The position numbers were made by a program, and so were the translations under genes. A model generated the notes under the pieces. The model saw nothing but the letters and a program-made list of their open reading frames with translations. It was not told the origin of the DNA and ran no database searches. A stretch of DNA of 64,000 nucleotides from NCBI GenBank assembly GCA_917880885.1, contig OU862913.1, positions 25,119,286 to 25,183,285 of the forward strand, written 5' to 3'. The DNA comes from Limnephilus marmoratus. Its lineage: Eukaryota; Arthropoda; Insecta; Trichoptera; Limnephilidae. Positions 4,174-63,186 of the stretch are shown in pieces. The first letter of the stretch is position 1. Each line of letters begins with the position of its first letter.

Positions 4174-4231
4174 GTTGGTGTGTATTTGTGTAATTATATG
4201 ATGTGAGGTTGTGTTTGGTGTACAGTAGTTT

Positions 4232-5041
4232 TTATGTCAGTTTATTAGATATATCGTTCAAGTGTTTTATTTCTATAACTTTTGAGTCCTTGGTTTTTCT
4301 TACAAGTATTTTTCCGGATTTTATCCATACATATTTATAGTCTTTTTCTTGGGCTCTTTTTCTGGTGTTCCAGTGCAGATTTTTATAGTATTGCGTTAGA
4401 GCCGCATTTACGTTAACATATTGGGCTCCTTCCCCGTTGAATTTTTTTATCGCGTCACTGTGTTTGGCTGCTAATATGGTATCCGCTTTTGTTATATCCG
4501 CAAAATTAATTGTAATTTTTTTCTGATCATTTGGTCTGTGTTTTGTGATTTTGTAGGTATCCTCTGGGGTAATCGTAACGCCTGCGAGTTCAGTGATCCG
4601 CGCAACAGCATGAGCTAGGGATGTGTCGTCCTGTAGTTTTAGACCGCTTATTTCTATACTTTTCAAAAGGGCCGATTGTTGTATATCCGCTAGATGGATT
4701 TCTACCGTAGCCAATCTGTTTTCTTTTTCCGCCAGTTCCTCCTTGAGTTTATTGACTTTGTTTGGAATGTCCATAATTTGTTGCAGTTTTTGTATAATGT
4801 CATCATATTTGTCGTTAATGAAGTTCGTGAAGGTTTTTATTTCTTGCAGCTCTGTTTCAATTTTATTGAGCATCACTGTCTTCATTTCCTCGAATTTCGT
4901 ATTGATAAATTCAAATATTGACTCACTGTCTATATTAATCATAGATTGGTGTGTCGCCGACGGTGAGTCCATGGTGCCAGTTAATAGGGGTGAGGATGTG
5001 GTTTTCTTCGCGCTGGAGAATTTACTGCGAGATTTAGACAT
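4232..5041 (-). CDS. LINE ORF1 protein (coiled coil plus FP-like C-terminus)
   Basis: This 269-residue ORF1 protein is expected to bind the element's RNA and form the ribonucleoprotein particle. The first ~40 residues are Ser/Thr/Lys-rich. Residues about 45-125 are heptad-rich (a run of EEMKTVMLNKIETELQEIK type, then KLKEELAEKENRLATVE) and predict a long coiled coil. Residues about 150-262 resemble the Baculo_FP-like C-terminal domain common in insect LINE ORF1 proteins, with a YKYVWIKSGKILVR signature; this is a transposon protein, not a viral gene. It is intact and lies 58 bp upstream of ORF2. The start is the first ATG of an open frame with an in-frame stop upstream. Clade unknown. Confidence 0.75.
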   Translation of the reverse strand: MSKSRSKFSSAKKTTSSPLLTGTMDSPSATHQSMINIDSESIFEFINTKFEEMKTVMLNKIETELQEIKTFTNFINDKYDDIIQKLQQIMDIPNKVNKLKEELAEKENRLATVEIHLADIQQSALLKSIEISGLKLQDDTSLAHAVARITELAGVTITPEDTYKITKHRPNDQKKITINFADITKADTILAAKHSDAIKKFNGEGAQYVNVNAALTQYYKNLHWNTRKRAQEKDYKYVWIKSGKILVRKTKDSKVIEIKHLNDISNKLT

Positions 5042-5842
5042 GTTGATTGCGTTTTTTTTTTTTTTTGCTTGTAGTTATAATTCTATGGTTTGTTCACAGA
5101 TGCCCCATATAATTTATTTTTTTAATAATTTTGGTGTATTGTCTATGACAGAAATGACTTTTTTTTTTCAAAAAACACATAAATTGTCTGTGGTTTATTA
5201 TGTCTTGTTTCGTTTTTTTTTTTTTTGACGAGATTTGTAGTTGTTTAGCACTGCCACTACCAAATAAACTCACTGTATTTAACGAATCACTGGTTCTTTG
5301 TTTTTTTTAGTGTTTTTGTAGTGTTTTTTGCTTAATTGTCACTTATTTTGCAATAAAAATTGGAGCTGTCAGAATGAGGTGTTGTTCCTTAGCGGTTATC
5401 CATAGATTTAATTAAAATATACATTAAAAACATATTAACAACCTATTCAACAACATTCCTTTTTTTAGTTTTCTGCGTACGTTGAGACCTATTGGGCATA
5501 ATTATGCACATTTTCAATTTCCTAATAAACAATACAAAAAAAAAATTAAAAAATATTTTTGTTTTATTAAAACCCCAATGAAGCCTAATCCACTCTTAAA
5601 TATTTTTTTTCTCGTTCAACAATAATTCAGGTCTGAACGGGTTAAAATTATATTTGATTATGTTATTATCGAGTTCTGTAAGTAATTTAGAATGTATCTT
5701 AGTTAGAACGGTTTAGACGGGTAAGGTCATTTTCTAACTGTGGTGAAGTCACTAACGGACGACTTATTTATAATGTTTTAAATTTCAATTTATGGAGTCT
5801 AAATTGATTAATTGCCGGTTAATCCAAATTGCAGAGAAACTA

Positions 5843-8313
5843 CTTTGAACATCAACATACTCCCAAATAACCCACACCACCAATGTCACGACTACCTGAA
5901 TATGTTAGAGTTCCATGGATTAATTAGTACCATCAATATACCAACAAGAACAGCTAATGAATCTACATCATGCATTGATCACATAATGGTCAAAACTAAT
6001 AAACAAAACAAAAGTATCGTTTACAAATCAACAATTACAGATCATTACACAACAATATTCACATTACAATCCGACGCCACAAAAACCAGAAGGGATCAGT
6101 CAATCATATACAATAATATTAATTTTGAAAATCTAAAAAACGTAATTAAAAATAAATCTTGGCAAGAGCTCTTCCAAATACAAAACTCAGATGATGCATG
6201 GAATTATTTTGTTGAATTTTTGAAAAATGAATTAATTAATAATACCACAATTTTAACAAAAAAATATCCTAACAAAATTAAACCCTTGAAATCATGGATA
6301 AACTTTTCAATTATCAACTGCATTCGTAGAAGAAACGCACTACACAAAAAAGTTAAAGAAAATCCTTACGACATAATATCACTAAACATCTACAAAAGAT
6401 ATAGAAATACATGCGGCGAAGTCATTAGAAAGGCGAAAGAAATCTACTACAGAGACCAAATCCAACAAAGTAACAACGATCCCAAAAAAATATGGCAAAC
6501 TCTAAGAGAAGCCACAAATACACAAAACACTAAAGACAAACAGGACATAAGTAAACTTTGTATTGACGGAAACATTATTGACACCTCAAAAAACCCCAAG
6601 CTCGTTGCGGATTATATCAATAATTTTTTTACAAATATTGGTTCAAATCTTGCTTCTCGTCTGCCAAATTGTGGGAATGCTCTACCCGCTGAAGCAGAAC
6701 TTCAATTTCCCAAAAGAAGATTCAATTTTCAAACTGTGTCAGGGGAAGAGATTCTAAAAACAATTAATTCCCTAAAAAACACTTCTTCTGCCGGGGTAGA
6801 TGGAATAACAACTAAGATATTGAAAACGCTGGCTATGGAAATTACATTGCCTTTTGAATACCTAATTAACCTTAGTATCAGTCAAGGACACTTCCCCTCA
6901 AACCTGAAACAAGGTATTGTTATTCCCATACATAAAACAGGTAACAAGACAGACATAAACAACTACAGACCAATAACTATACTGACCACTCTATCCAAAA
7001 TATTTGAAAAAATTATTAATGCCCAGTTGGTAAAATTTCTGGTTAGCCATAAAGTACTCTCAGAAAATCAATACGGATTTCAAGAAAACAAGAGTACTTC
7101 AGACGCTATTGCCGCCGTAACTGACTTCATTGTAAAAAACCTTGATAGAAGCAAAAAATGTATTTCAATATTTTTAGACCTTTCTAAAGCCTTCGATACA
7201 ATATCACACAGTAAATTAATAAACAAACTTCAAATAATCGGTATTACAGGCAACGAACTTAACTTTTTTAAGAGCTACCTTGATGAGCGCAAGCAACAAG
7301 TGAAAATAATGAACACACTTAGCAATCAGTGCTCAACTAACTATGGCATACCACAAGGTAGTATATTAGGACCGTCTTTGTTCCTTTTATATATCAATGT
7401 CTTATGTAACATTAATATTCAGGGAAAAATAGTTAGTTTTGCCGATGACACTGTTTTACTGTTTGAAGCTGACACTTGGGTAGATGTCTACAAAAAAGCT
7501 GAAACGGATATAAACATTATAAAAAAGTGGTTAGATACAAATACGCTCACTTTGAACACCGAGAAAACTAAATATGTCACATCAAGCATAAATATAACTG
7601 GTCAGCCTCATGATGATGCCTCCATTAGGATACACAAATGTTTTAATTCCGATGAATCTTGTCAGTGTCCCTACATTGAGCGCACTACACAGATGAAGTA
7701 TCTCGGCCTCACAATTGATCCATATCTCAAATGGAATATTCATACTCAAATAATTGCAAACAAAATAAGAAAAACCATGCACTTTTTCAGAACGATAAGA
7801 AACTTTCTCGACTTACAACACTTGAAAATGATTTATTTTGCAGTCTGTCAATCTATTATTGAGTATGGTATCATTGCATGGGGAGGCGGTACTGCATCAG
7901 CACTAGACCCAATCATAAAGGCACAGAAAACTATTATAAAATTGATTCTTAGACTACCTCTAATTACAGACTCGAACTTAATCTTCAATATTATGAATGT
8001 GTTTGATGTTCGGCAGATATATGCAAAAACAATCCTTACTCATCTATACACAAATATACATAAATACTATGAAAAAAGATTAAATACTTGCTTTACTCGA
8101 AACAATGACAAAGACTTACTACAAATCCCCAAAACGCATACTACTTTTGGTCAACGAAATTTCAGATACCTTGCAACAAGACTTTACAACATTCTTCCAG
8201 ATAGAATAAAAAAATGTGATTCCCAAAAAAATTTCAAAAATAACATAAAAATTTGGATCAAAAATAATGATAGGGCCTTTACCGGTGCACTTACCCAAAT
8301 TCGAAATTATTAA
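5843..8313 (+). pseudogene. LINE ORF2 fragment: partial endonuclease plus intact reverse transcriptase
   Basis: The open frame covers the last third of the endonuclease (it starts within the GDLNIN block; SCIDHIMVK and STITDHY are present), then the whole reverse transcriptase with IFLDLSKAFDTISH, YGIPQGSILGP and the catalytic SFADD, and a CPYIERTTQMKYLGL region. It is uninterrupted for about 820 codons to the stop at 8313. It lacks ORF1, a promoter and most of the endonuclease, so it cannot move on its own. An ATG at 5812 belongs to flanking DNA and is not a real start. It is roughly half identical in protein to the LINE at 817-5290, so the family has more than one lineage here. Confidence 0.8.
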
Positions 8314-15258: not shown

Positions 15259-15743
15259 AAAATGCGTTTCATTTCAGAGATTTATTATAATTATAGCTGG
15301 TCCCGGCATGCGTTGCTATGCCATTTAATAAAGAAATTGTTTCTCCCTGAGTGTCCTTTCCCATTCGTCCCGTTTCCCTTCCGTCTCCCCTTCTTCTCCT
15401 GCGTCCTCTTCCCCTCTCGCGTTCCCACTCCGTCACCTCCACCTTTCCACTCCCCACTCCACTCCCTCCCCCCTTCCTCCGTTTCCCTTCTCCCGAGTTC
15501 TCCTCCTCCCTCTCAGGTTTCCCTCCCCCTCCCAGGTTCCCTTTCCCCTCTCACCTTCGCCTTCCACCTTCCTCACTTTCCACCTTCCCCGCCTTCCCTC
15601 TTCCCTTTACCGCTCTCTCATCCCGCCAACCCTCCTCCCGCGTTCCATATAATTAAGATCCATGAATGTTTTACTCAACAGAGGTGCATATGGTACCACG
15701 GACAATCATTCATTAAAAATATCAGTAGCAATATTGTAAAGTG

Positions 15744-16265
15744 AAAATAATTTTCTTCGGAGTGGAACACCCTTTATTCACGCACAGTTCAGTAGTATAC
15801 CCCTTACAATATTGCTGAAGTTCTTTAAAAATAGGAGAATTCTTTCAATACAAAATGTATGGGGAAAATAATTTTCTTCGGAGTGGAACACCCTTTATTC
15901 ACGCACAGTTCAATATTATACCCCTTACAATATTGCTGCAGTTCTTTCAAAATAGGAGAATTCGTTCCCTACAAAATGTATGGGGAAAATAATTTTCTTC
16001 GGAGTAGAACACCCTTTATTCACGCACAGTTCAATATTATACCCCTTACAATATTGCTGCAGTTCTTTCAAAATAGGAGAATTCGTTCCATACAAAATGT
16101 ATGGGGAAAATCATTTTCTTCGGAGTGGAACACCCTTTATTCACGCACAGTTCAATATTATACCCCTTACAATATTGCTGAAGTTCTTTCAAAATAGGAG
16201 AATTCGTTCCATACAAAATGTATGGGGAAAATAATTTTCTTCGAAGTGGAACACCCTTTACTTTT
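15744..16265. repeat. 121-bp tandem repeat, about 4.3 copies
   Basis: The phrase AAAATAATTTTCTTCGG starts at 15744, 15865, 15986, 16107 (one base different) and 16228, an exact period of 121 bp. The units are nearly identical, so the array is young. It sits inside the composite insertion next to the pyrimidine-rich tract. Confidence 0.9.
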
Positions 16266-21697: not shown

Positions 21698-22120
21698 CTG
21701 TAATTAAAACATATTATATAATGTATGAGCAATTTCTTCATACCGATTGTCCAGTTGATTAGTCAGACATCTCCAAATACTAAGTTTTGAAATAATTTGG
21801 AAAGCAATTTATGAATGCTCAACATAAATTCAACTTTATTAACAAGTGTCTGTGTTTTACATATGAAATCTTACATATTAAAATCAATATTTGCTTGCTT
21901 GTTCGTATTTTATGCACTGCTGTTCATCTGATTGCGATGAAACTTTGGTGATTTGTTGTGCACAAGCCTGCGAAGGTTTCTATTTATAATGGTAAGCTCT
22001 GGCGTTATTAAATTTGTATAAGTAGTACCCATATACTCGCCCCCCCCAAATTGAAAATAAGATTTCTTTTGATTTGCCAAATATCTTAATAAATGAAGAA
22101 ATAATAAAAAATATATGTAC

Positions 22121-22536
22121 CTCAAGAGGTGTCCAGGCGCAGACGTGGATCGTTGCTGCATTTGGAGTGTTAATTCCCCCGAGAGATGACCAGAGGCAGA
22201 CGTGGATTGTGGTTGCATTCAGAGTGTTTCCCTCAAAAGATGTCCAGTGGCAGACGTGGATTGTTGTTGCATTCAGAATGTTCCCCTCAAGAAAGGTCCA
22301 GTGACAGACGTGGATTGTTGTTGCATTCAGAATGTTCCCCTCAAGAAATGTCCAGTGGCAGACTTGGATTGTGGTTGCATTCAGAATGTTCCCCTCAAGA
22401 AATGTCCAGTGGCAGACGTGGATTGTTGTTGCATTCAGAATGTTCCCCTCAAGAAATGTCCAGTGGCAGACATGGATTGTGGTTGCATTCAGAATGTCCC
22501 CCTCAAGAGATGTCCAGAGGCGGAGATTGTTATGAG
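22121..22536 (-). other. Exon-like array of 54-bp repeats (F)
   Basis: Seven units of about 54 bp (18 codons) are nearly identical. On the minus strand they read in the style CHWTFLEGNILNATTIHV. The frame is open from upstream of the array through the donor-like CTTGAG|GTACAT at 22121. A candidate acceptor AACTAGTTCAG lies at the other end. The array is homologous to the 57-bp units at 10-18 kb. The gene is not recognised. Another plus-strand frame is open too, so translation is not proven. Confidence 0.5.
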
Positions 22537-23245: not shown

Positions 23246-26200
23246 CTATAGGTGCTCAGCAGGTCTGGCTTCCTGGTGGCCACGGAGAAGATCAACTATC
23301 TCTTGGTGACCCCTTTGTTCCGCCCAGTAGAGAGCTGTGCGACCATCCTCGTCCTGCAATGATATATTGGCGTTGTACTGCAGAAGTAACTTCACAATAT
23401 TCACACGTCCATAGAGTACCGCCTCAGACAATGCTGTTTTACCGGTTCTGTTCTGATGGTTTATTTCTGCCCCGGAGTCTAGCAGCATGCGTGTCACCTC
23501 GTGGTGTCCATTCTCTGCAGCCATCATCATGGCAGTAATACCATCACCATCTGCCGAGTTAATATCTGCCCCGGAGTCTAGCAGTAAGCGTGTCACCTCG
23601 TGGTGTCCATTCTCTGCCGCCTTCATCATGGCAGTAATACCACCACCATCTGCCGAGTTAATATCTGCCCCGGAGTCTAGCAGCATGCGTGTCACCTCGT
23701 GGTGTCCATTCTCTGCAGCCATCATCATGGCAGTAATACCATCACCATCTGCCGAGTTAATATCTGCCCCGGAGTCTAGCAGTAAGCGTGTCACCTCGTG
23801 GTGTCCATTCTCTGCCGCCTTCATCATGGCAGTAATACCACCACCATCTGCCGAGTTAATATCTGCCCCGGACTCTAGCAGCATGCGTGTCACCTCGTGG
23901 TGTCCATTCTCTGCCGCCTTCATCATGGCAGTAATACCACCACCATCTGCCGAGTTAATATCTGCCCCGGAGTCTAGCAGCATGCGTGTCACCTCGTGGT
24001 GTCCATTCTCTGCAGCCATCATCATGGCAGTAATACCATCACCATCTGCCGAGTTAATATCTGCCCCGGAGTCTAGCAGTAAGCGTGTCACCTCGTGGTG
24101 TCCATTCTCTGCCGCCTTCATCATGGCAGTAATACCACCACCATCTGCCGAGTTAATATCTGCCCCGGAGTCTAGCAGCATGCGTGTCACCTCGTGGTGT
24201 CCATTCTCTGCAGCCATCATCATGGCAGTAATACCATCACCATCTGCCGAGTTAATATCTGCCCCGGAGTCTAGCAGTAAGCGTGTCACCTCGTGGTGTC
24301 CATTCTCTGCCGCCTTCATCATGGCAGTAATACCACCACCATCTGCCGAGTTAATATCTGCCCCGGACTCTAGCAGCATGCGTGTCACCTCGTGGTGTCC
24401 ATTCTCTGCCGCCTTCATCATGGCAGTAATACCACCACCATCTGCCGAGTTAATATCTGCCCCGGAGTCTAGCAGCATGCGTGTCACCTCGTGGTGTCCA
24501 TTCTCTGCAGCCATCATCATGGCAGTAATACCATCACCATCTGCCGAGTTAATATCTGCCCCGGAGTCTAGCAGTAAGCGTGTCACCTCGTGGTGTCCAT
24601 TCTCTGCCGCCTTCATCATGGCAGTAATACCACCACCATCTGCCGAGTTAATATCTGCCCCGGACTCTAGCAGCATGCGTGTCACCTCGTGGTGTCCATT
24701 CTCTGCCGCCTTCATCATGGCAGTAATACCACCACCATCTGCCGAGTTAATATCTGCCCCGGAGTCTAGCAGCATGCGTGTCACCTCGTGGTGTCCATTC
24801 TCTGCAGCCATCATCATGGCAGTAATACCATCACCATCTGCCGAGTTAATATCTGCCCCGGAGTCTAGCAGCAAGCGTGTCACCTCGTGGTGTCCATTCT
24901 CTGCCGCCTTCATCATGGCAGTAATACCACCACCATCTGCCGAGTTAATATCTGCCCCGGAGTCTAGCAGCAAGCGTGTCACCTCGTGGTGTCCATTCTC
25001 TGCCGCCTTCATCATGGCAGTAATACCACCACCATCTGCCGAGTTAATATCTGCCCCGGAGTCTAGCAGCATGCGTGTCACCTCGTGGTGTCCATTCTCT
25101 GCCGCCTTCATCATGGCAGTAATACCACCACCATCTGCCGAGTTAATATCTGCCCCGGAGTCTAGCAGCATGCGTGTCACCTCGTGGTGTCCATTCTCTG
25201 CCGCATTCATCATGGCAGTAATACCATCACCATCTGCCGAGTTAATATCTGCCCCGGAGTCTAGCAGCAAGCGTGTCACCTCGTGGTGTCCATTGTATGC
25301 AGCTGCCATCATGGCAGTAATACCATCACTATTTGCAGAGTTAATATCTGCCCCGGAGTCTAGCAGCATGCGTGTCACCTCGTGGTGTCCATTCCTTGCA
25401 GCCCTCATCATGGCAGTAATACCACAACGATCTGCCGAGTTAATATCTGCCCGGAGTCTAGCAGCATGCGTGTCACCTCGTGGTGTCCATTTATTACAGC
25501 CCACTTCATGGCAGTATCACCAACATAATTTGCAGAGTTAATATCTGCCCCGGAGTCTAGCAGCATGCGTGTCACCTCGTGGTGTCCATTGCTTGCAGCG
25601 ATCATCATGGCAGTATCACCATAACTATTTGCAGAGTAAATATCTGCCCGGAGTCTAGCAGCAAGCGTGTCACCTCGTGGTGTCCATTTATTACAGCCCA
25701 CTTCATGGCAGTATCACCAACATAATTTGCAGAGTTAATATCTGCCCCGGAGTCTAGCAGCATGCGTGTCACCTCGTGGTGTCCATTGCTTGCAGCGATC
25801 ATCATGGCAGTATCACCATAACTATTTGCAGAGTAAATATCTGCCCCGGAGTCTAGCAGCAAGCGTGTCACCTCGTGGTGTCCATTCTCTGCCACCTTCA
25901 TCATGGCAGTAATACCACCACCATCTGCAGAGTTAATATCTGCCCCGGAGTCTAGCAGCATGCGTGTCACCTCGTGGTGTCCATTGCTTGCAGCGATCAT
26001 CATGGCAGTAATACCACAACGATCTGCCGAGTTAATATCTGCCCGGAGTCTAGCAGCATGCGTGTCACCTCGTGGTGTCCATTTATTACAGCCCACTTCA
26101 TGGCAGTATCACCAACATAATTTGCAGAGTTAATATCTGCCCCGGAGTCTAGCAGCATGCGTGTCACCTCGTGGTGTCCATTTTTTGCAGCGATCATCAT

Positions 26201-26317
26201 GGCAGTATCACCATTACTATTTGCAGAGTAAATATCTGCCCCGGAGTCTAGCAGCAAGCGTGTCACCTCGTGGTGTCCATTTTTTGCAGCGATCATCATG
26301 GCAGTATTACCATAACG
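23246..26317 (-). pseudogene. C-terminal ankyrin array of the hydrolase-NACHT protein
   Basis: This is the continuation of the gene at 27898-32780 beyond the hAT insertion. It encodes about 30 ankyrin repeats of 33 residues (99 bp), with the consensus ADINSADGxGITAMMKAAEN and GHHEVTRMLLDSG. The last two repeats are divergent (NRTGKTALSEAVLYGR and DEDGRTALYWAEQRGH) and act as the cap before the stop at 23246. Three units carry the same one-base deletion (CCCC to CCC in the segment starting at 26041, 25646 and 25449). Each shifts the frame by one, and together they restore it, so the final 22 repeats are in the original frame. In between, the frame closes within about 17 codons. Either the gene is broken here or these are homopolymer errors copied by duplication. 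Confidence 0.75.
23469..26317 (-). repeat. 99-bp ankyrin-coding tandem array with higher-order pattern
   Basis: The 99-bp units are almost identical at the DNA level, including silent sites. Between about 23470 and 24960 they follow a three-unit (297-bp) order: GDG/MMM with RMLLDSG, GGG/MMK with RMLLESG, GGG/MMK with RLLLDSG, interrupted by two-unit versions. The diagnostic GACTC variant starts at 23871, 24366 and 24663 (steps of 495 and 297 bp). This pattern shows very recent unequal exchange or gene conversion. Confidence 0.9.
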
Positions 26318-27897
26318 CAGTGGCGGCGTAGGGTAGATTGGCACCCGGGGCGGTTTTTTATTGAACACCCTACATAAAATAAAACACCAAATACTAAACA
26401 TGCTTATGAGACTTCATTTTACTAAAATATTCGATCACAATATCAAGATTGTTTTCCCTTCTCTTTTAATTGATAATATAGAAAAATTCGTTATCCGCGC
26501 TTGGCTCATTGTGGACCTCAGATAAGATTTTATTAAGGAGACAGAAAAAGATATTGTCACCTCTGGGACTCGAACGCGGGACCTTCTGTTTACATGGAAA
26601 CAGCTCTACCAACTGAGCTAAGGTGTCTATATCCAATTCGGTCACATTTAACTGTATCATTCTTCGACTAAGAACTACGAACTTTATCTTCATTTTCTTA
26701 ACGCACATATTATTGGCCGCTACCTTTATATATATTGCAAGATTCAAACCCGAACTAAATGCTATCTACAAGGGCGGATCGAAGATTCTTTTCTGTGGGG
26801 GGGGGGGGCACAAGGGGCGGACGGGCAAAAAATCAACAATTACTGTTAGGATTTTTTTCTGGGGGGGCACAAGGGGCGAATGGGCAAAAAAATCAACAAT
26901 TACTGTTAGGATTTTTTTCTGGGCGGGCACAGGGGGCGGAAAGGCAAAAAATCAACGAATACTGTTAGAAAAATGAACTTACGTATCATATTTCAAGTTT
27001 ATTTCTACAAGTTCAAGTATGTATATGAAGGTTTATGAAAGTATGGGAGTTGTTTTACAACTCTCATAATAATTATTCAATCTATTCTAATATGCAGGGT
27101 TCTGTTAAAATAAAATAAGAAGAATGGTACTCACTTGGTTTATTGACAAATAACAATTACTAAATAATAATGAACAGAGATGTTGCTTGGTGCACCTATT
27201 GTCACGGAGTGACAGGCCGTGCCGCGTCTCTCCCGCGTCTCTCCGCGGTGGTGGGAGTATCGACACTCCACAAAAGTGTCAAAACAATGGAAAATTAAAT
27301 GTTTAAAAAATACAGTTTTAGCTTCTAAGTATATATTGTGACGGAATCTCCACAGTACAGAAAAATACCCTCTGGGGGGGGGGCCTCACCCCCCCCCCCC
27401 CCCCTCTCCTATATCCGCCCTTGGCTATCTAGATAGTGTCTGGATAAATTATTAATTAGCTCAGTTAGTAGAGCTGTTGCCATGTAAACAGAAGATCCTG
27501 GCTTCAAGTGCCAGAGGTGCCGATAACTTTTTCTGATTTTTCTGTCTCCAGATTTCCGATTGAGCTTCGCTAATTTCTTCTTTCAACGCCTGCTTTACCG
27601 GTATTGGGATTACGCATCTCTTAGAGTGTTGATACAAGCTTCTCAAAATTATTCTTCAGTTTTAGAAAGGGAATTAGAAATTCTATTAAAAAAAATAATA
27701 TATAGTTGCGACGCATTTCAAAATATGATAATGTAAGTAGCTAGATACAAGAGTACGTAGTTATTTATTGAAATGTCTTTACAGCAGGAGATTTTGTGCG
27801 CATTCTTTGGCTGTACGAGTGGGTTGTCGTTGTCACCCCTTGGTGCTTGGCAGCCGGGGCGGACCGCCCCCTCCGCCCCCCCCTTACGCCGCCACTG
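26318..27897. mobile_element. Non-autonomous hAT element inside the ankyrin array
   Basis: The termini are CAGTGGCGGCGTA and TACGCCGCCACTG. The 8-bp target CCATAACG lies on both sides (26310-26317 and 27898-27905). It carries two tRNA-like SINE heads in opposite orientation (26556-26628 minus, 27455-27521 plus) and a nested MITE (26769-27423). The same element in the opposite orientation lies at 43161-44581. No transposase is present. Confidence 0.92.
26769..27423. mobile_element. Nested hAT-like MITE
   Basis: The ends are CAAGGGCGGATC and ATCCGCCCTTG. The target GCTATCTA is duplicated at 26761-26768 and 27424-27431. The sister element at 43161-44581 has a single GCTATCTA at the matching place (about 44125, minus orientation), which is the empty site. 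It includes a short tandem repeat (AATCAACAATTACTGTTAGG, about 26838-26960) and poly-G/C runs. Confidence 0.88.
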
Positions 27898-30800
27898 CCA
27901 TAACGATCTGCCGAGTTAATATCTGCCCCGGAGTCTAGCAGCAAGCATGTCACCTCGTGGTGTCCATTCTCTGCAGCCATCATCACTGCAGTAACACCAA
28001 AATTATTTTCGCAGTTAATGTTAGCCAACATTTCTTTAGAATATATAATACAATTATTTTCGTACTTTAATGTGCTATCACGGTATTTAAATATTTTCTC
28101 CTTTCCATCGTTTATCTGTTCATAGGTTTCTTCAGATTGATTTAATAAAAAATGAACAATTTTTAAATATCCCCGCTCCGCTGCACAATGCAAGGGAGTA
28201 TACCAATATATATCATGCGATACACAAACTCCTTGTTTTGCAAATAATTTAAATAATGTATGATATTGTTTTTTTATTGCTAGATTTATAGCAGTATCTC
28301 CCTGACCATCAGTGGTAATCAATAAGGATGCTCGCTCTGTATCACTTTCCAGGTCACTGAAGATCTTTACCACAGTCTCATAGTCATCATCTCTCACTGC
28401 CGCAATAAATGGCGCAAATATAATATCTTTTATATGACGTGTTCTTACCAATGCCTGGTTTACGCTAGGTAAATGCTGTGTATTTAAGACATATTCTTCA
28501 AAATAAGATCTTTCGATGTTTTTTTTATATTCCTTGCCTAAGAAAGTAGCAAGCATTAGTCCTACTATTGACTCATACAAGCAACTCCTTACATTCTCAG
28601 TTATTTGGTTTACAATATTAGTATTTCCCTTCTCCAATGCTATATTTAGCATGGTCCTCCTATCCTTATCTCTTGATGTAATTAAAGAAATATAGCCTTC
28701 ATCAGATATCCTGCTGGGCGGACCACTAAGAAGAACTCCAACAATGCGTGTATTCTGTTCCTCAGCTGCTATATGTAATGGAGTTTTTTTATGATCGTGG
28801 TAGAATAGCTGACGATGTTCAGACCAATGTTGATAAATTTTTGGGTGATTTTCCAGTTCTTCATCAGAAATTGGCGTTGTTTCAAGCTGTGTCTCGATGA
28901 ACATTCTGATTATTTTATAGTCTGGCATGAGCAAAAATTTACAAAATTCATTTTTAATCAGTGTGTTTTCTTCTTTACTGTTTCTTCCCTGTCGGAGCCA
29001 TCGAACAAAGAAATCAGCACAAAAGTATTCTTGGAACGTCCGGTGAACAAAATGGAAAGTTCCATCAGTTTTATACTTTAACAGCCCGAGACTACTTATG
29101 TCTTTCACTTCTTCGGTCGTCAGGTCAGATAGTTTAATGTTTGCCAAATATTCCGTGGTGAATGTCGGGTCGATGGTCTGGAAAGCCAAGACACAATGCT
29201 TTTCCATCACATCTTTAAACATAGCTTTTTGGTGGGTAAGTGGAAGATTGTAGATATTAGTCTTTTGCTGAAAATATATTTTTTCCTTGACTTCAATGAA
29301 CTGTTTATACAAGACAAACAGATTGGTGATTTTGGACAAGTTATTGACTTGTTCAGGAGGTATCACAGACTGTATGGCCTGCTGGAGGAACACTTCTGCC
29401 AGCATACGGATCTGCAGCGGGATGCCCATGAAGCTGGCCACATCGTTCCTAAGCACTCCCTTAACCTCCTTCCGCAGACCTCTGGTAAACTGGCGCAGCC
29501 TTCCCTTCTCCAGCTCTCCGTACTGTGGGAGTTCCAACGCCAGGTGAGGAAGCCAGAAGTTCACCAAATAATCCTCCTGCTCTTCTTCTGTAATTTTTTC
29601 CAGTTCTACCGCAAATTCTTCCAAATCGTTTTCAAGCCAATTTTGTTCGTATTTCCGTGTAGTCATTACTGTTTGACAGGTTGTAACAGTTTTTAAATAT
29701 TTCAGGAGCTTCGCCATTTTAACTTTGTTTTCCTCAAAAATTTCATCAAAAGCATCTACCAAAACACAAACCTGCCTCGAATTGTCTGATTGTAGGCAAT
29801 ATTCTAATAGACTGCTCACTATTTTTTTATCCGTAGGTAAATTCGACGCGTGAATCAAAAATTTGATGACAGATTTCATGTCAAGTCTCGAAGGTAATTT
29901 TAAGTTAACCAAATTCTTATGTTCAATTCTCAATACCCAGGACTCTGGGATGAGCTCCGACATGCGCGTTAGTATGGTGGTCTTCCCCATACCAGGATCA
30001 TCAGCGATGATGGTATGCTTCTTCTTCCTGACGCAGAAGTCCTCTTCCTTAATGGGGTCCTCGGAGTCCCTGGTGATGAAGGGGCGCAGGCCATCCAACG
30101 AGCCCTTGGAGTATTTCCACACTAGACACGGCTTGCCTCTAATCTCCAACATTTCAAAATAATGTCTCCTAAATGATTCCTCCTTTTTTTTGTCTTCGAC
30201 ACTCAATTCTTGAGATGGTGATCTTATTATAAAGTGACTGTTTTTTGTAAGTGCGTCCTCAGCTTCCCCAGTTAAGCCAAAGGTTTGAATTAACGATTTT
30301 TTATCTTTAACGTTGTTGAATATAAATAAATCCTTATCTTCCTTGTACTGGACGAATACATTTATGGATTTAATAGTGAGTCGACTGTGGAACTTCCTGG
30401 GCAGGTACACACTTGTATTGAAAACTTCATTCAGGGTGAAGCCTTCAGCGGATAAATTGAAAAAGTAAATTAGTCGAGCTGACCCCTCCCGACATTTTTC
30501 CAAAAACATATCTTGCCCATCATCCTTTGTGGTGTATATTCTCCCCCTTAAACCCTCCCCCACCTCCCCCCAGTAGTCCTGGACGAGCCCCTCTGGATCG
30601 CTGATCACCAGCAGCGGTCCATCAGCCCCACTCCTCTCCAGTAATGTGGTAAGCCCCTCTCTGTCAACTATCTTATTCCCTTTGGAATAGAGAGCACTTT
30701 GTTCACAAAGCCGGGGGAGGGTATTGGAGATTTTTTCTATACACAGTTTGTCCATCACAAGGTCCTTTAAAAAGGGTGAAATCAATTGATTTATTTTTTC

Positions 30801-32780
30801 ATTTGGAGTTTTACAGTCATTTCCCAGTATAACTTCGAAGCTTAGGGTTTCTTCACCTATTATAATTGCATCTCTGGAGAATATTTTTTCTCTAGACAAA
30901 GGAGTTAGATCTTCTAATTCAAATTTTTTTAAAGTCTTTGTTTCAACAGTTAGTTTAAAATCATCAAATAGTTGTTCACCAATTGACTGAGATCGAATGA
31001 TCACAAGCTTCTTGTGAATAAATAATGTTAAATTTAGCAATATGGTTCTCATTAGATCGCAGTCTGGGGGTATTTGAGGTTGGTTAGTATCAGTTGAAGG
31101 TGGAAAATTAAGAATGCACAAGTTATTATTGGTAACGTCGCGCTTGTTCAAACCTTTCAAATCTATAGCTGTGTTTTGCATATCATTCCAATTTAATATT
31201 GTATGACAGTTTGGATGCGTGTAGTCTTTTATGTCCAAAGATGTTAAGATATTGCACAATCTGGCAGCTTCAAAGTCAAAATCACTTGTCACAATTATTT
31301 GCAAAACACGCTTAGAAGATTCTAAGAATGGCTCCAGCCCCAAGGTGTCCTCACAGTCTAGTACATTGGGTAAGGTGCGGAGGTATGCCTGACTAGCCGA
31401 GTATAAGGGAGCTGACTTTATACTCTCACTCTGTATTTTGATAGCATCAATGATCCCAGGAAACCAGCGCAATAATTGTTTGGTTTGTCCAATCACCTTT
31501 CTCAAATCATCCTTTGAACCGGAGATGATAGAATTTTTTCTAGTTTTTATCTTAAATTCTGGGAATTCTAGTGTGTCCAGCATTTGTTTAGATGTGAATG
31601 CTTTAATTTCGGTTAGTTCAATTAGTGGATTACTTTGAAACAAGCTCCAACTTTCAATGAGGTTAAACTCTTCTGTGGAAAACACTCCAAGATGGCAAAT
31701 TTTTCCCAACGATTGAACCGTGCTATACTTCAAGATTCGTTTTTCTTCTGAGTATATTCTCTCAGCATTTTGTTCAGCAACTATTTCTATGCTCTCGTGG
31801 CTGCCACTAGAACTCTCAGGAGGAGCTTGTAAGATGTAGGAATTGGTGAACTTTTCCAACTCGTGGTAATGTTTGCGCTCGTCCCATCCTTGAGGCCAGT
31901 TCAGTACATCATATGTATCCTTCGCATCGTCAAAAGCTTTGATGAAAACACCTATACTGTGTGTGTCTGTATCGCAAAAGGTAAGTATGTTGGGCGGATG
32001 GGAGTCGCTGGGGAGAGCGTCACGTTTGATATGAAACTGATGTAGCTGACCTGCGTGATACCCGCTGGTGTTCACCAAGTTTGGAGCGGAAAAGTAGGTT
32101 GTTATGTCCAATTCTTTGGTATACATCGATTGATCATATCGAACACTATAATTCCTGCTTATTTTGATGAGCATATCTTCGACCCCAGGGCTGTCCAGTG
32201 CCAAAGTATGGGCGTGAAGGCCTTCATCAGGGCGGACGATATTGCAGAAGCCAGAGTTTGACTTTTTGAGGTATTTGACCGTCATGGTGGTGATTCCGGC
32301 CAGCCATGCTCCGAGTGAGTGGCCCGTAAAGGACATAACAAACCGACTGCCATATTCTTCGTTTACATCCAGAATTGCTCGCTTGACGTCATCTGCAAAT
32401 GAAACAGCCGAATTCATGTGGGGGGTGTTCATGTTGCAAACGACACCAATACCATCTGTTAAGATCGCTCCCCAACACGTGGGGTCTGTTCCCCTGTGAG
32501 CTAGGACCACTTGCTGCTGTATCGGGCTCCAACAGGCGCATCCGAAGTATCCATTACTCCGGGAGTTGTTCCGTGCCGTGGTGAGTAGAAGCCATCCTTC
32601 AGGCAGGTCTAGCTTCCCAGAACAATCCGAGTAAGCTAAATTTGCCAAAGCTGCCAACACTCTATTATTAGGAAACGGTTCCATCGCGAGTTTGGTTCTG
32701 TTGTCAGCAATGCGATGGAAGGATTCCAGGCTTTTCCGCCAGTTGGCTTGGCTATAAACCAGGTTCTTGTCGGCCTGCAT
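27898..32780 (-). CDS. NLR-like protein: lipase-like hydrolase, NACHT NTPase, ankyrin repeats (N-terminal part)
   Basis: A single uninterrupted frame of about 1628 codons. Residues ~75-280 form a class-3-lipase-like alpha/beta hydrolase: AHRGTD (94-99, oxyanion side), the nucleophile elbow GHSLG with Ser155, ALDSPG (194-199) and a late DTHSIG with His274 as probable catalytic His. Residues ~920-1260 are a NACHT NTPase: Walker A DDPGMGKTT (927-935), Walker B VLVDAFDE (1006-1013), sensor-like VMTTR (1038-1042) and the winged-helix signature FVHRTFQEYF (1244-1253). Ankyrin repeats start near 1330 (KTPLHIAAE), again at 1527 (YTPLHCAAERG), and run into the tandem array. By analogy with NLRs, the repeats would sense, NACHT would oligomerise, and the hydrolase would act; this is inference. 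At 27897 the frame enters the hAT element, adding 43 foreign codons. An acceptor-like TTGCCCTTCTTGCAG ends at 32818, so translation may begin in an upstream exon. Confidence 0.85.
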
Positions 32781-34100
32781 GTTGGAAAGATGGGAGATGG
32801 ACTTTCTGGAGCTGATTCTGCAAGAAGGGCAACAATAGACAGAGTTGGTATTGTGGCAAACAATTCAAATCGCTATTCAAATATTTTAACCACTGAGGCT
32901 AATTTGTTTGCTTTTCGGAACAACTCATATAGGAATCATTTTGCCTCCTTTAACAATTAGAGTGAGATATATAAACGGTATTGGAATGAGAAAACACCAT
33001 GCTCTATATTCAAATCTAAAAGAAACCACAAAAGAATTGTTATGTATTCCTTTATAAAACCATTAACCACTGGAGCGCTTTTTGCCACAATATGGCACTA
33101 TTTAAAATATCCCGGATTGCTTTGCTGCCAATTCTGGTAAATTTTCCCTCATTTGTAAGTAATTAAGTAGAAGTTTACGACTTTATAATATTTTTTTTAT
33201 AAATCCTACGAATATGTGATAATCGACAAAAGATAGGAAAATTCATTGACTATATAGAACTATAATAAGTTTGTATGTCTCCATATTAAAATTAGGAGGT
33301 ATGATTTTTTTTTATGTGAGCGGAAAATATTCAAAATGATTACCAAAAATTCTCAACCAATCGGAGAAAAAAGTTTTATAGTGTGCTTCGCTTCAGTGGA
33401 TAATAAATAACATTTGTAATTCATTTGAATAATAAAATATGTGCATGTTTATTTTTTCATTAGCAATTTTGGTTATAAAATACGTAGTTAAGATGAGCCA
33501 TTTTTAAAAGTTTTAAATGTTTGTGTTCAAAAATTTTATATTTGTAAAATTACATGGTTATTTCCAATAATAAAATTTTAATGCGTTTTTCATCACCTTT
33601 CAAAAACAGTTTCAGGTTTTCGGATGCATTCACAAATATTCTATTTATCAGGATTTAAATGCAAAGCGGAAATATTCTGACCTACTGACCGAATATAGTC
33701 GCGACCTGAGAGGTTGAAATAATGAGTCCTGATTCGTAATTTACTAAACATGTTCCTCAAATAATATTAATTTAAGAAAAACCGCGAAGTCAAATCTTCT
33801 TTGCTGGTTTTTTATTTCTTTTTTAATCTAACCCAAACAAAGAACCAACCTATTTAGGATCGCAGTTTCATATTTTGGGTTAAACAAAAGAAGAAAAATA
33901 CACATTTTAAAACTTATCAATAATAATGGCCGAAAAATGAAAAATCGGTTTTAATTTTAAATAAATAACTGAGAACATATTAAGATGCATTAATTTCCAT
34001 TTCAATTGGCCTAACCTTACCTAACCTAACCCATTATCAATCTATTGTGTATTGATGCGCTCCATTATGACATTCCAAGAAAGAGATTATGACATTATGA
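32781..34100. other. Upstream flank of the NACHT gene, dispersed repeat modules
   Basis: 32818 is a candidate 3' splice site (minus strand). 32900-33060 is the GGAACAACTCATA module also at 11420 and 51995. 33570-33730 is the module ending GCAAAGCGGAAATATTCTG that recurs at 10135, 12210, 16610, 18830, 19850 and 56900. No gene and no clear promoter element is visible. Confidence 0.5.
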
Positions 34101-43160: not shown

Positions 43161-44581
43161 CAGTGGCGGCGTAAGGGGGGGGCGGAGGGGGCGGTCCGCC
43201 CCGGGTGCCAAGCACCAAGGGGTGACAACGCCAACTCACTCGTACAGACAAAGAATGCGCACAAAATATCCCCCTGTAAAAACATTTCAATAAATAACTA
43301 CGTACTCCTGTATCTAGCTACTTACATTATCATATTTCGAAGGCATCGCAACTATATTTTTTAATTATTTTTTCGAATATAATTTCTAATTCCCTTCCTA
43401 AAACTAAAGAATCATTAATTTTTAGAAGCTTGCATTAACACTCTATGATATATGATATATGTGATCCCAACACCGGCAAAGAAAGCGTTGAGAGAAAAGA
43501 TGCAGGATCAACACTCATACCAGCTTTGTGTGACTTCAGTTTTCTATGCTATCTTTCCTTTTGGTGTGAAGTCCTAGAATAGGTTAATCAGACAAAAAGA
43601 TAAATATAAAAATCTGGGCTATCATTGGAAAAGTGTGTAATAAAACTCTTAAAATTTTCTTTAAAATCAATGCAACCAAATAATGGAAAAGGCTATTTGC
43701 TACGCAACAAAAAATGTGAGGACTTAGACGTCCGATTGAAGGAAAAAGAGGAAGGAGGATATTTCGAAAATGTCTGGAGCAATGGTCCGAGATGCCGGAC
43801 TTACATTACCAAAGGACCTGCAGAGAGAAATGTTTAAATGTCACGATAGATTTTACGAAGAACTAGACCATCGTTATAGGGCAATGGTTTCTATTTTGGT
43901 TATATTTAGTGTTTATTTTTATATTTAACTTTATGAGTAAAATCTCAAATTGTAATATTTAATTAAATGAAGACAATATTAAAGAAACTTAATCGAAAAT
44001 CTGGAGACAGAAAAATCAGAAAAAGATATTGGCACCTCTGGGACTCGAAGCCAGGACCTTCTGCTTACATGGCAACAGCTCTACCAACTGAGTTAATTAA
44101 TCATTTATCCAGACACTATCTAGATAGCATTTAGTTCGGTTTTGAATATTGCAATCATATATAAAGGTATAATATAATATGTGCATTAAGAAAATGAAGA
44201 TAACGTTGGTAGTTCTTAGTCGAAGAATGATATAGTTAAAAGTAACCGAATTGGATATAGACATCTTAGCTCAGTTGGTAGAGCTGTTGCCATGTAAGCA
44301 GAATCCTGGGTTCGAGTCCCAGAGGTGCCAATATCTTATTATGATTTTTCTGTCTCCTTAATAAAATCTTATTAAGGTCCACAATGAGCTAAGCGCGAAT
44401 AACCAATCTTTCTGTGTTATCAATTGAAAGAGACAGAGAAAACAATCTTGATAATGTGATTGAAAATTTTATTAAAATGAAGTCTCGTAAGCATTTAATA
44501 TCAGCATTTGGTGTTTTATTTTATGTAGGGGTGTTCAATACAAAACCGCCCCGGGTGCCAATCTACCCTACGCCGCCACTG
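43161..44581. mobile_element. Non-autonomous hAT element, sister of 26318-27897
   Basis: CAGTGGCGGCGTAAGG and TACGCCGCCACTG are the termini. ATCATATA is repeated at 43153-43160 and 44582-44589. It is in the opposite orientation to the copy in the ankyrin gene and carries the same inverted tRNA-like heads (44031-44097 minus, 44260-44330 plus). It lacks the MITE nested in the other copy. Confidence 0.92.
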
Positions 44582-48560: not shown

Positions 48561-48629
48561 GCCATCGACAACGAGTCCATCTTACGAGTTTCAGCTCGAT
48601 CAGATATTAATAAGAAACAGAAATTACAC

Positions 48630-48955
48630 CTGAAGTTCCTGAAGGTGATGAAATTTGGGTTCATCATTATGAACCCGAGTCTAAACAGGACTCAATGCAG
48701 CGGCACAGAAAGGCACACCACCCACCCAAGAAGTTTAAGGTGTCACAATCGGCTGGGAAAATCATGGCGACAGTCTTTTGGGACTCTGAAGGAATTCTGA
48801 TGATCGATTACAAAGAAAAGGGTGTTTCCATAACCGGAGATTACTACGATTCAATCCTAGAGCAATTAAAGGAAGTCATCAATGAGAAAAGAAGGGGAAA
48901 ATTGAGCAAGAGTGTCCTTCTGCACGACAACACACCTGTTCACAAGATATTTTAT
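48630..48955 (+). pseudogene. mariner transposase remnant
   Basis: It encodes the block GDEIWVHHYEPESKQ, then PPKKFKVSQSAGKIMATVFW and LLHDNTPVHK. These are the two conserved catalytic-Asp regions of mariner (D34D) transposases: the first DE(x)W block and the second HDN block. N-terminal DNA-binding domains are missing, and the copy is cut by the LINE fragment starting near 48960. Confidence 0.8.
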
Positions 48956-48959
48956 TCGG

Positions 48960-49725
48960 TCTGTTTTTTTTTACAGAGTAGGGGGGGAATCGCAGATGTT
49001 GGTGTTTATACATTTTTATTGCAAGTACGGGGAGCCAAGGGAGAGGAGTCGATTTTAAAGTTCCGCTTATGGTTCGCATTGTGGCATTAAGCTGAACGTC
49101 GATAATGGAAGTGTGAGCGCTTCTAGCCCATACTGGAGCACAGTATTCAGCTGCTGAGAAAACCAGGGCAAAACATAACCCCGCCAAATATTAGGCGATA
49201 GATTGCAACACTGAGGGAATACAAGAAGGCGCTGCAAAAAAGCGCAATACCTTTGCACGATGATGTCGTTTCTCACCCGGCATGCCGCTTGAAGTATTTA
49301 AAACCCTTCTGGATTGAAGGAGAAAGACTCCTTCGATCACCTCTCACCCCAGAAGATAGGTGGAAAAGCTTGAGTGGCAATCAGCAAACGACAAAAACGC
49401 CCATCTTGTTGAAGACCCCTCTGAGAGACAACCTGGGTTCTCATTGCCTCGCAAACTCTGGACCGCCATCAATAGGATAAGGTTCTCCCATAGCCGTTGT
49501 GGTCACATGATGCATATATGGGACCTTAAAGAGTCGGCAATGTGTGAATGCGGTGCGGTGCAGACCACCGAACATGTGGTCAACGAATGCCCGCTCCATT
49601 CATTCCCCGGCGGGATTGATGAGGTCCATACGGCAATGCCTGAGGCCCTAGACTGGCTCGCAGACCTAGATGTCCCCCTCTGACCCCCCACCATACGAAA
49701 GAAGAATATATTTATATTTATCATA
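48960..49725. pseudogene. LINE 3' end with inverted 5' segment
   Basis: On the minus strand 49187-48990 reads GLCFALVFSAAEYCAPVWAR, then STPLPWLPVL. On the plus strand from 49168 the next part of the same LINE follows: PPNIRR, RLLRSPLTPEDRW and a final MCECGAVQTTEHVVNECPL zinc-knuckle-like region, with stop at 49681. The inverted piece ends exactly where the sense piece begins in the protein, the signature of twin priming at target-primed reverse transcription. Confidence 0.7.
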
Positions 49726-62485: not shown

Positions 62486-62831
62486 CGGTTTACGGGAGAT
62501 GGTCCTAGATAAATTTTTTTTTTTTTATTTTAATTATGGGCCGGAAAATCCGAATCTGAAAGAATTAGGCGTCGGCAAGCAATATTAACTGAATTACACG
62601 ACTTTAAAATTTTCTATAAACACTAAGGAAAAAACGTCATTTTTAATGCGCTGACATAAGAAGTCATAGAAAAACAAGAAATGTACAAAAACATGTGTCG
62701 GCAGTGTTACCAACTCTCAAAAATATTTATCCCTATATCAATAACGTAAAACTTTCCGACACGACACTTCCTCACATGATAATTCATCACATAACACATT
62801 AACCTGAAAACCTAACCTAACCTAACCTAAC

Positions 62832-63186
62832 GCTAGGTTTGTGTAACATGGTTTGTGCCCCTTTATACCGCCTGCTCGCGTCAAGGCAAGAAAACATCCC
62901 AGTTTTCAACTAGTTTAGCGGCTACGCTAGGTTTGTATAACATGGTTTGTGCCCCTTTATACCGCCTGCTCGCGTCAAGGCAAGAAAACATCCCAGTTTT
63001 CAACTAGTTTAGCGGCTACGCTAGGTTTGTATAACATGGTTTGTGCCCCTTTATACCGCCTGCTCGCGTCAAGGCAAGAAAACATCCCAGTTTTCAATTA
63101 GTTTAGCGGCTACGCTAGGTTTGTGTAACATGGTTTGTGCCCCTTTATACCGCCTGCTCGCGTCAAGGCAAGAAAACATCCCTCAT
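62832..63186. repeat. 94-bp tandem repeat, 3.8 copies
   Basis: GCTAGGTTTGT starts at 62832, 62926, 63020 and 63114, an exact 94-bp period. The units differ at only a few bases. Preceded by CCTAACCTAACCTAACCTAA and followed directly by a 54-bp array. Confidence 0.92.

What the first reader, a model, noticed from the sequence alone, without database searches (positions are those of the whole stretch)
23246..32780. An insect NLR-like gene: lipase-type hydrolase, NACHT and ankyrin repeats in one protein
Seen: GHSLG nucleophile elbow with a plausible Ser-His pair, then a complete NACHT (Walker A, Walker B, sensor, winged-helix signature), then ankyrin repeats. Established: NACHT proteins with an enzymatic head and a repeat sensor are defence or cell-death switches in fungi, plants, vertebrates and bacteria, while insects are usually described as lacking canonical NLRs. 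Inference: this gene could be an innate immune sensor whose activated form hydrolyses lipid. The ~640-residue middle region (280-920) has no family I recognise and may hold a new domain.
Basis: partly seen in the sequence, partly recalled or inferred. Interest (0 to 1): 0.88.

Follow-up and report, generated by a model that had tools for sequence, protein, structure and literature searches.

The report
Lipase-headed double-ATPase animal immune-switch gene
This gene, probably from an arthropod, joins a lipase-like domain, a predicted ATPase-like domain without an ATP-binding loop, a NACHT switch with intact motifs and ankyrin repeats in one reading frame, and it likely served as an infection alarm that would cut lipids, although the repeat end of this copy is broken by a transposon and three frameshifts.

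The parts
27765..32780 (-). Coding frame from the first Met (residue 29 of the open frame 27765-32864) to the stop: lipase head, middle domain, NACHT, first ankyrin block
   Evidence: the start agrees with P0001, whose first residue aligns at residue 35
31875..32687 (-). Class-3-lipase-like head, about residues 60-330; Ser183, Asp224, His302
30708..31427 (-). Middle domain, residues ~480-719: predicted STAND/AAA+-type ATPase fold without a P-loop (pseudo-ATPase)
29562..29999 (-). NACHT nucleotide-binding domain, residues 956-1101 (Walker A GMGKT 958-962, Walker B VDAFDE 1036-1041, sensor MTTRK 1067)
   Evidence: Pfam NACHT E 4.5e-4, under cut-off; P-loop in 65 of 65 family NACHTs; motifs
28965..29561 (-). 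Helical and winged-helix part after the NACHT, with FVHRTFQEYF at 1272-1281
   Evidence: alignment A1; the winged-helix name is by motif, not by a fold prediction
27898..28802 (-). First ankyrin block (~residues 1355-1655), still in the frame of the head
   Evidence: Pfam Ank_2 E 2e-24
26318..27897 (-). hAT-like insertion, 1,580 bp, ends CAGTGGCGGCGTA / TACGCCGCCACTG, flanked by the 8-bp duplication CGTTATGG; interrupts the ankyrin frame
   Evidence: a second copy at 43161-44581, 85.5% and 87.6% identical in the two end pieces
23246..26317 (-). Second ankyrin block: 29 anchored head-to-tail units (28 distances: 25 of 99 bp, 3 of 98 bp), then a diverged C-terminal cap and stop; the three 98-bp units (starting 26080, 25685, 25488) shift the frame

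Best explanation
The gene encodes a lipase-like head, a predicted P-loop-less ATPase-like domain, a NACHT with intact Walker motifs and ankyrin repeats in one frame, and most likely it served as an intracellular STAND defence switch in which repeats that bind a trigger would let the NACHT assemble and free the lipase to attack membranes. Shown by calls: the domains, their order, the conserved catalytic and Walker residues, the lack of a P-loop in the middle domain of all 72 relatives that have it, the spread over animals, and the breaks in this copy. Predicted: the folds. Inferred: that the ankyrin part is the sensor; that the middle domain is a regulatory partner of the NACHT (a latch or an assembly surface) because it could not bind nucleotide in the usual way yet is kept; that activation is by nucleotide exchange and oligomerisation as in other STAND proteins; that the output is lipid hydrolysis leading to death of the infected cell or damage to the invader. 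This copy has lost its distal repeats from the frame, so it would make at most a short-repeat form and may be a recent pseudogene.
Against: No expression, activity or infection data. The window copy is broken. Repeat variation gives pS 0.056 and pN 0.051 among the 7 distinct units of the last block, i.e. no excess of replacement change; enrichment at ligand-contact positions is weak (entropy p 0.02, count p 0.11; positions recalled from designed ankyrin proteins). EDS1 has the same fold and is a scaffold rather than an enzyme (recalled), so conserved residues do not prove activity. The middle and the protein's own NACHT are not detectably homologous in sequence (hhalign 21%). Foldseek alone gives the middle only E 4.6e-4 to a ClpA chain. 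The window's own Lipase_3 and NACHT scores are under Pfam's cut-offs.
Confidence: 0.5

Rival explanations
1. This copy is simply a decaying pseudogene of a multigene family and has no present function.
For: hAT-like insertion in the ankyrin region and three one-base losses, each in the unit after an AMKWAVIN unit (3 of 3) and so copied along with the array rather than scattered error.
Against: The 1,699-codon frame with lipase, middle, NACHT and the first ankyrin block is open, and the last block is open over 756 codons. A truncated product could still act. Not exclusive with the best explanation, which concerns the family.
Confidence: 0.55
2. The lipase head is no longer an enzyme but a signalling scaffold, as plant EDS1 is.
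Confidence: 0.15
3. The protein is a non-immune lipid regulator: a STAND switch that controls lipid turnover in response to a metabolic signal.
For: STAND proteins also serve in non-immune signalling (recalled); no infection data exist here.
Against: Patchy spread among the hits, several genes in one mite (five Blomia proteins), different heads and repeats on the same core, and near-identical repeats (up to 93% in Blomia P0063) are habits of defence families.
Confidence: 0.2
4. The lipase head was captured from an intracellular symbiont effector and was fused to an animal NACHT gene once.
For: The best-scoring prokaryotic heads belong to Amoebophilaceae and Rickettsiales; heads form one animal-type group against one bacterial group in the tree (96/86 and 98/91).
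Against: The tree is unrooted, so direction is open; bacterial heads already sit on STAND proteins with NB-ARC and TPR, which suits reuse of a shared module equally well. The NACHT tree does not resolve whether lipase-headed proteins form one group.
Confidence: 0.2

Closest known systems
Fungal NLRs with sesB-like or patatin lipase heads and internally conserved ANK/TPR/WD repeats (Dyrka 2014, PMC4986451, passages seen)
   Same: Enzymatic lipase-type head, NACHT/NB-ARC, ankyrin array of near-identical units (last block 93% mean residue identity over 19 units; yardstick there is over 85% over 100 residues)
   Different: Not a fungal gene; head is class-3-lipase type (homology with sesB not tested); extra pseudo-ATPase between head and NACHT
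Lipase + NB-ARC + TPR proteins of Rickettsia endosymbionts and Amoebophilaceae (L001, L002, L005, L008, L010)
   Same: Homologous lipase head with the same catalytic residues, followed by a STAND ATPase and repeats
   Different: NB-ARC and TPR in place of NACHT and ankyrin; no middle domain detected
Arthropod NACHT-ANK proteins without this lipase (Anoplophora P0013, Periplaneta P0014, Aedes P0015/P0016; unnamed P0012); arthropod NACHT homologues of prophage WO (PMC5062602, passages seen)
   Same: NACHT and ankyrin; P0012-P0014 also share the middle domain
   Different: Other or unassigned N-terminal heads; no lipase match; the Aedes pair shows no middle (0.1%)
Avs4 (bacterial anti-phage STAND protein, 8dgf)
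   Different: Middle has no P-loop; 9% identity in the structural alignment; Avs4's head and sensor are of other kinds (recalled)
Bona fide animal NLRs (NACHT + LRR)
   Same: NACHT with Walker motifs and winged-helix signature
   Different: No LRR, no death-fold head; ankyrin repeats and a lipase instead
Rickettsial RLip (PMC12507273, passages seen)
   Same: Distant similarity of the lipase domain
   Different: A secreted effector without NACHT in the paper's text; far below the family cut-off (19.4 against 440 bits)

Membership tests
STAND NTPases, NACHT branch | Walker A, Walker B, sensor and winged-helix signature in order | tested here: met
   Motifs at 958, 1036, 1067, 1272; family alignment; window Pfam NACHT below its cut-off, P0003 and P0013 above it, P0007, P0011 and P0014 below
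Bona fide animal NLR | C-terminal leucine-rich repeats | tested here: not met
   Pfam scan lists ankyrin repeats and no LRR
Bona fide animal NLR | Death-fold head (CARD, PYD, DD) | tested here: not met
   Head is a lipase fold
Class 3 (GXSXG) lipase-like alpha/beta hydrolases | Fold and Ser-acid-His set | tested here: met
Class 3 lipases | Lipid hydrolysis | not testable with these tools
   needs protein
Fungal-type NLR with internally conserved repeats | Enzymatic head + NOD + repeats over 85% alike over 100 residues | tested here: met
   19 units of the last block: 93.3% mean residue identity, minimum 81.8%, 96.4% in DNA; all 25 full units 86.9% mean, minimum 72.7%; breaks interrupt the frame
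Fungal-type NLR | Common descent of the lipase head with sesB or patatin | not tested
   no fungal NLR was compared
Avs family | Active STAND ATPase with P-loop in the Avs4-like domain | tested here: not met
   No P-loop in the middle of 72 proteins; the loop columns hold letters in 70 of 72 rows and none has GK[ST]
RLip (NF052630) | NCBIfam cut-off of 440 bits | tested here: not met
   19.4 bits
hAT transposons (the insertion) | Terminal inverted repeats and 8-bp target duplication | tested here: met
   CAGTGGCGGCGTA ends, CGTTATGG duplication, second copy; superfamily by recall
hAT transposons (the insertion) | Transposase | tested here: inconclusive
   Longest stop-to-stop frame listed wholly inside it is 119 codons; its frames were not scanned with profiles

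The most novel reading that the evidence does not exclude
Animals from Hydra to mites and fireflies keep an ancient class of double-ATPase defence switches in which a dead, Avs4-like STAND domain permanently gates a live NACHT, with a lipase as interchangeable warhead that is shared with, and perhaps traded with, their intracellular bacteria, and with an ankyrin array that is rewritten by repeat duplication as in fungal NLRs.
Probability: 0.3. Interest if true: 0.86.

Novelty: new variant of a known kind. Interest (0 to 1): 0.64.

Why it matters
Arthropods and Hydra are described as lacking bona fide NLRs (passages of PMC4986451, PMC7308585). A family with an enzymatic head, a STAND core and near-identical repeats in these animals would be a candidate for a missing intracellular sensor class and would tie animal, fungal and bacterial STAND defence together. 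The P-loop-less ATPase domain kept beside an intact NACHT makes a clear, testable question: does a dead STAND domain gate a live one? The lipase head shared with symbiont STAND proteins raises whether hosts and intracellular bacteria draw on one arsenal.

Tried and rejected
Rejected: (1) one intact protein over 23246-32780: the insertion and three 98-bp units break it. (2) A bacterial or viral origin of the whole gene: no full architecture in the genome-contig scan (22 relatives, each listed match in the lipase or in the NACHT part; in the 20 loci examined no protein matched both profiles), none in viral contigs (50 pattern stretches, 0 relatives), phages or plasmids. These scans start from short patterns or need E 1e-5, so they do not exclude distant ones. 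(3) The middle as an internal duplicate of this protein's NACHT: hhalign 21%. (4) The plus-strand frame 23457-25541 (694 codons) as a gene: it is the antisense of the 99-bp array. (5) Naming the species through the LINE reverse transcriptase: 1,100 hits at E 1e-50, 120 listed, none with a species name. (6) PADLOC on the window protein: PDC-M72A over the ankyrin part and a weak mad8 match (E 0.0024) over the NACHT. (7) Adaptive change in the repeats: pN about equal to pS. (8) A further copy in the window: tblastn of residues 1-1440 finds only the gene itself.

Corrected on checking: my first P-loop count used a stricter pattern for the middles than for the NACHTs. With the strict pattern only 9 of 65 NACHTs match; with one common pattern 65 of 65 NACHTs and 1 of 72 middle envelopes match, and that one is P0013's NACHT P-loop caught by the envelope.

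Absent from the lists but not excluded: inflammasome NLRs and other NB-ARC or NACHT structures are not among the 50 rows shown for the middle by VIA; Foldseek lists CED-4 (2a5y_C) at E 8.2e-3, rank 48.

Literature: ten searches and passages of nine papers showed no lipase-NACHT-ankyrin protein in an animal and no P-loop-less STAND domain before a NACHT; most listed papers were seen only as title and start of abstract, and most subscription journals are not held.

Full report
WHAT IS THERE. On the minus strand one frame is open from 32864 to 27765, 1,699 codons, with a Met at 32780 that fits the start of the nearest relative P0001. Pfam finds ankyrin repeats (Ank_2 E 2e-24), Lipase_3 (E 2e-4, 21.7 bits against a cut-off of 22) and NACHT (E 4.5e-4, 20.5 against 26.7). 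The last two are under the curated cut-offs in the window protein. Of the relatives, Lipase_3 passes in P0003, P0007 and P0011 and fails in P0001; NACHT passes in P0003 and P0013 and fails in P0007, P0011 and P0014. The family alignment keeps GHSLG-x-WLA and GMGK unchanged in all 12 rows. Motifs in the window protein: GHSLG 181, DSPG 224, THSIG 301, GMGKT 958, VDAFDE 1036, MTTRK 1067, FVHRTFQEYF 1272. No second copy lies in the window.

THE BREAKS. After about residue 1655 the frame runs into an element of 1,580 bp (26318-27897) that begins CAGTGGCGGCGTA, ends TACGCCGCCACTG and is flanked by the 8-bp repeat CGTTATGG. A second copy lies at 43161-44581, 85.5% and 87.6% identical in the two end pieces. 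By its ends and 8-bp duplication it is hAT-like (superfamily by recall). Beyond it the ankyrin array continues to 23246: 29 anchored units; of the 28 distances between them 25 are 99 bp and 3 are 98 bp. The three short units each follow a unit of the type AMKWAVIN, and all three AMKWAVIN units are followed by a short one, so the shift was most likely inherited and copied with the array rather than being scattered sequencing error. The last block is open for 756 codons and ends in a diverged cap and a stop.

RELATIVES. The first search gave 16 proteins, a profile search 78 (only 7,986 candidates were scored). Of the 92 proteins then at hand (window included), 60 have lipase, middle and NACHT at E 1e-10. 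Named holders: Hydra vulgaris (P0010, with TPR), the millipede Chamberlinius (P0011, no repeats found), the mite Blomia tropicalis (five proteins with lipase and middle, four of them with a NACHT match: P0063, P0068, P0073, P0075; P0059 without), the spider Parasteatoda (P0064). Fireflies Pyrocoelia (P0078) and Aquatica (P0079) have lipase, a diverged middle, NACHT and ankyrin. Most others are unnamed metagenome or assembly proteins. Anoplophora, Periplaneta, P0012 and two Aedes albopictus proteins have NACHT and ankyrin without this lipase. So the middle and the NACHT occur together under different heads, though not always: the Aedes pair shows no middle.

THE BACTERIAL CONNECTION. In the scan of 84,980 species genomes, which starts from two short peptide patterns, 22 loci encode a relative, each listed match lying in the lipase or in the NACHT part; in the 20 loci examined no protein matched both profiles. 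Lipase relatives: Amoebophilaceae, Rickettsia endosymbionts of two beetles (hosts recalled as beetles), other Rickettsiales, Proteobacteria MAGs, two Bacillota and the two loci left out. Six proteins were scanned with Pfam: all six match TPR and Lipase_3 (L006 just under the Lipase_3 cut-off); five match NB-ARC, three of them above its cut-off (L002, L005, L008), L001 and L010 below it, and L006 not at all. L003, L004, L007 and L011 were not scanned. No bacterial middle was found at E 0.01 in 20 loci. A tree of 68 heads (26 of 94 rows left out by hand, mostly near-duplicates and fragments) separates an animal-type group (48 rows, 96/86; it includes the unnamed HEAT-repeat protein P0082 and P0083) from a bacterial group (16 rows, 98/91); four rows (P0080, P0081, P0092, L007) lie outside both. 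The root, and so the direction of any transfer, is open, and several long branches are flagged. The NACHT tree (27 rows) separates animals from two cyanobacteria but leaves the deep animal order unresolved.

THE REPEAT ARRAY. Nineteen full units of the last block are 96.4% identical in DNA on average (minimum 88.9%) and 93.3% in residues (minimum 81.8%); all 25 full units 92.5% and 86.9% (minimum 82.8% and 72.7%). Of 13 variable codons 12 change the residue; the most variable ankyrin positions are 10, 3, 13 and 2. Positions 2, 3, 5, 13, 14 and 33, the surface positions of designed ankyrin proteins (recalled), carry more entropy than random sets (p 0.02) but not significantly more variable sites (p 0.11), and pN is about equal to pS (0.051 and 0.056). 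The array meets, by its mean, the 'high internal conservation' yardstick of fungal NLRs (over 85% identity over 100 residues; passages of PMC4986451), but selection is not shown. A crude self-comparison of 92 stored proteins finds similar near-identity in P0063 (93%), P0082 (91%, HEAT repeats) and P0042 (86%).

MECHANISM. Most likely: repeats bind a trigger, the NACHT exchanges nucleotide and assembles, the lipase is released or clustered and attacks membranes. The middle, an ATPase fold that should not bind nucleotide in the usual way, would act as gate or assembly surface. Each of these steps is inferred from STAND proteins in general; none is tested here.

KNOWN OR NEW. Papers seen in passages say arthropods and Hydra lack bona fide NLRs (PMC4986451, PMC7308585), yet arthropod NACHT genes were noted in connection with prophage WO (PMC5062602), a shrimp NACHT-LRR gene is reported (PMC12370184) and two tick genes are listed as LRR and NACHT domain proteins (PMC4141456). 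Fungal NLRs with lipase heads and ankyrin repeats are the nearest described kind. RLip, a distant lipase relative, is a secreted rickettsial lipase; NACHT does not occur in the RLip paper's main text. Ten literature searches gave no description of this animal architecture or of the pseudo-ATPase. I file it as a new variant of the STAND/NLR-like kind, not as an NLR. That the organism is an arthropod is probable from the named relatives, not shown; no search named it.

Noticed in passing
L001, L002, L005, L008, L010: Intracellular bacteria (Amoebophilaceae, Rickettsia endosymbionts) encode lipase + NB-ARC + TPR proteins with open frames of 984-1,653 residues: STAND proteins with a homologous lipase head, role unknown (defence against phage or host-directed).
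   Followed up: partly
43161-44581 and 26318-27897: Two copies of a hAT-like element without a long frame; tRNA-like segments called by ARAGORN lie in both (26555-26627 and 44260-44330), so those tRNA calls belong to the repeat.
   Followed up: partly
1200-8310: Two LINE-type retrotransposon regions on opposite strands with reverse transcriptase; the minus-strand one also has an endonuclease frame and a Baculo_FP-like frame, in three separate open frames.
   Followed up: partly
22120-22521: 54-bp tandem repeat, 7.4 copies, beyond the 3' end of the gene; it gives open frames on both strands.
   Followed up: no
15743-16260 and 62830-63182: Tandem arrays of 121 bp (4.3 copies, 96%) and 94 bp (3.8 copies, 98%).
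   Followed up: no
48614-49087: Transposase fragment (Transposase_1, E 9e-21), mariner-type by recall.
   Followed up: no
P0013 (Anoplophora): N-terminal part holds an OTU-like DGNCFFHA motif (recalled) and an unassigned stretch before the shared middle + NACHT: a different head on the same core.
   Followed up: no
P0059 (Blomia tropicalis): Carries two lipase heads in tandem and the middle, but no NACHT match; possibly a gene-model fusion.
   Followed up: no
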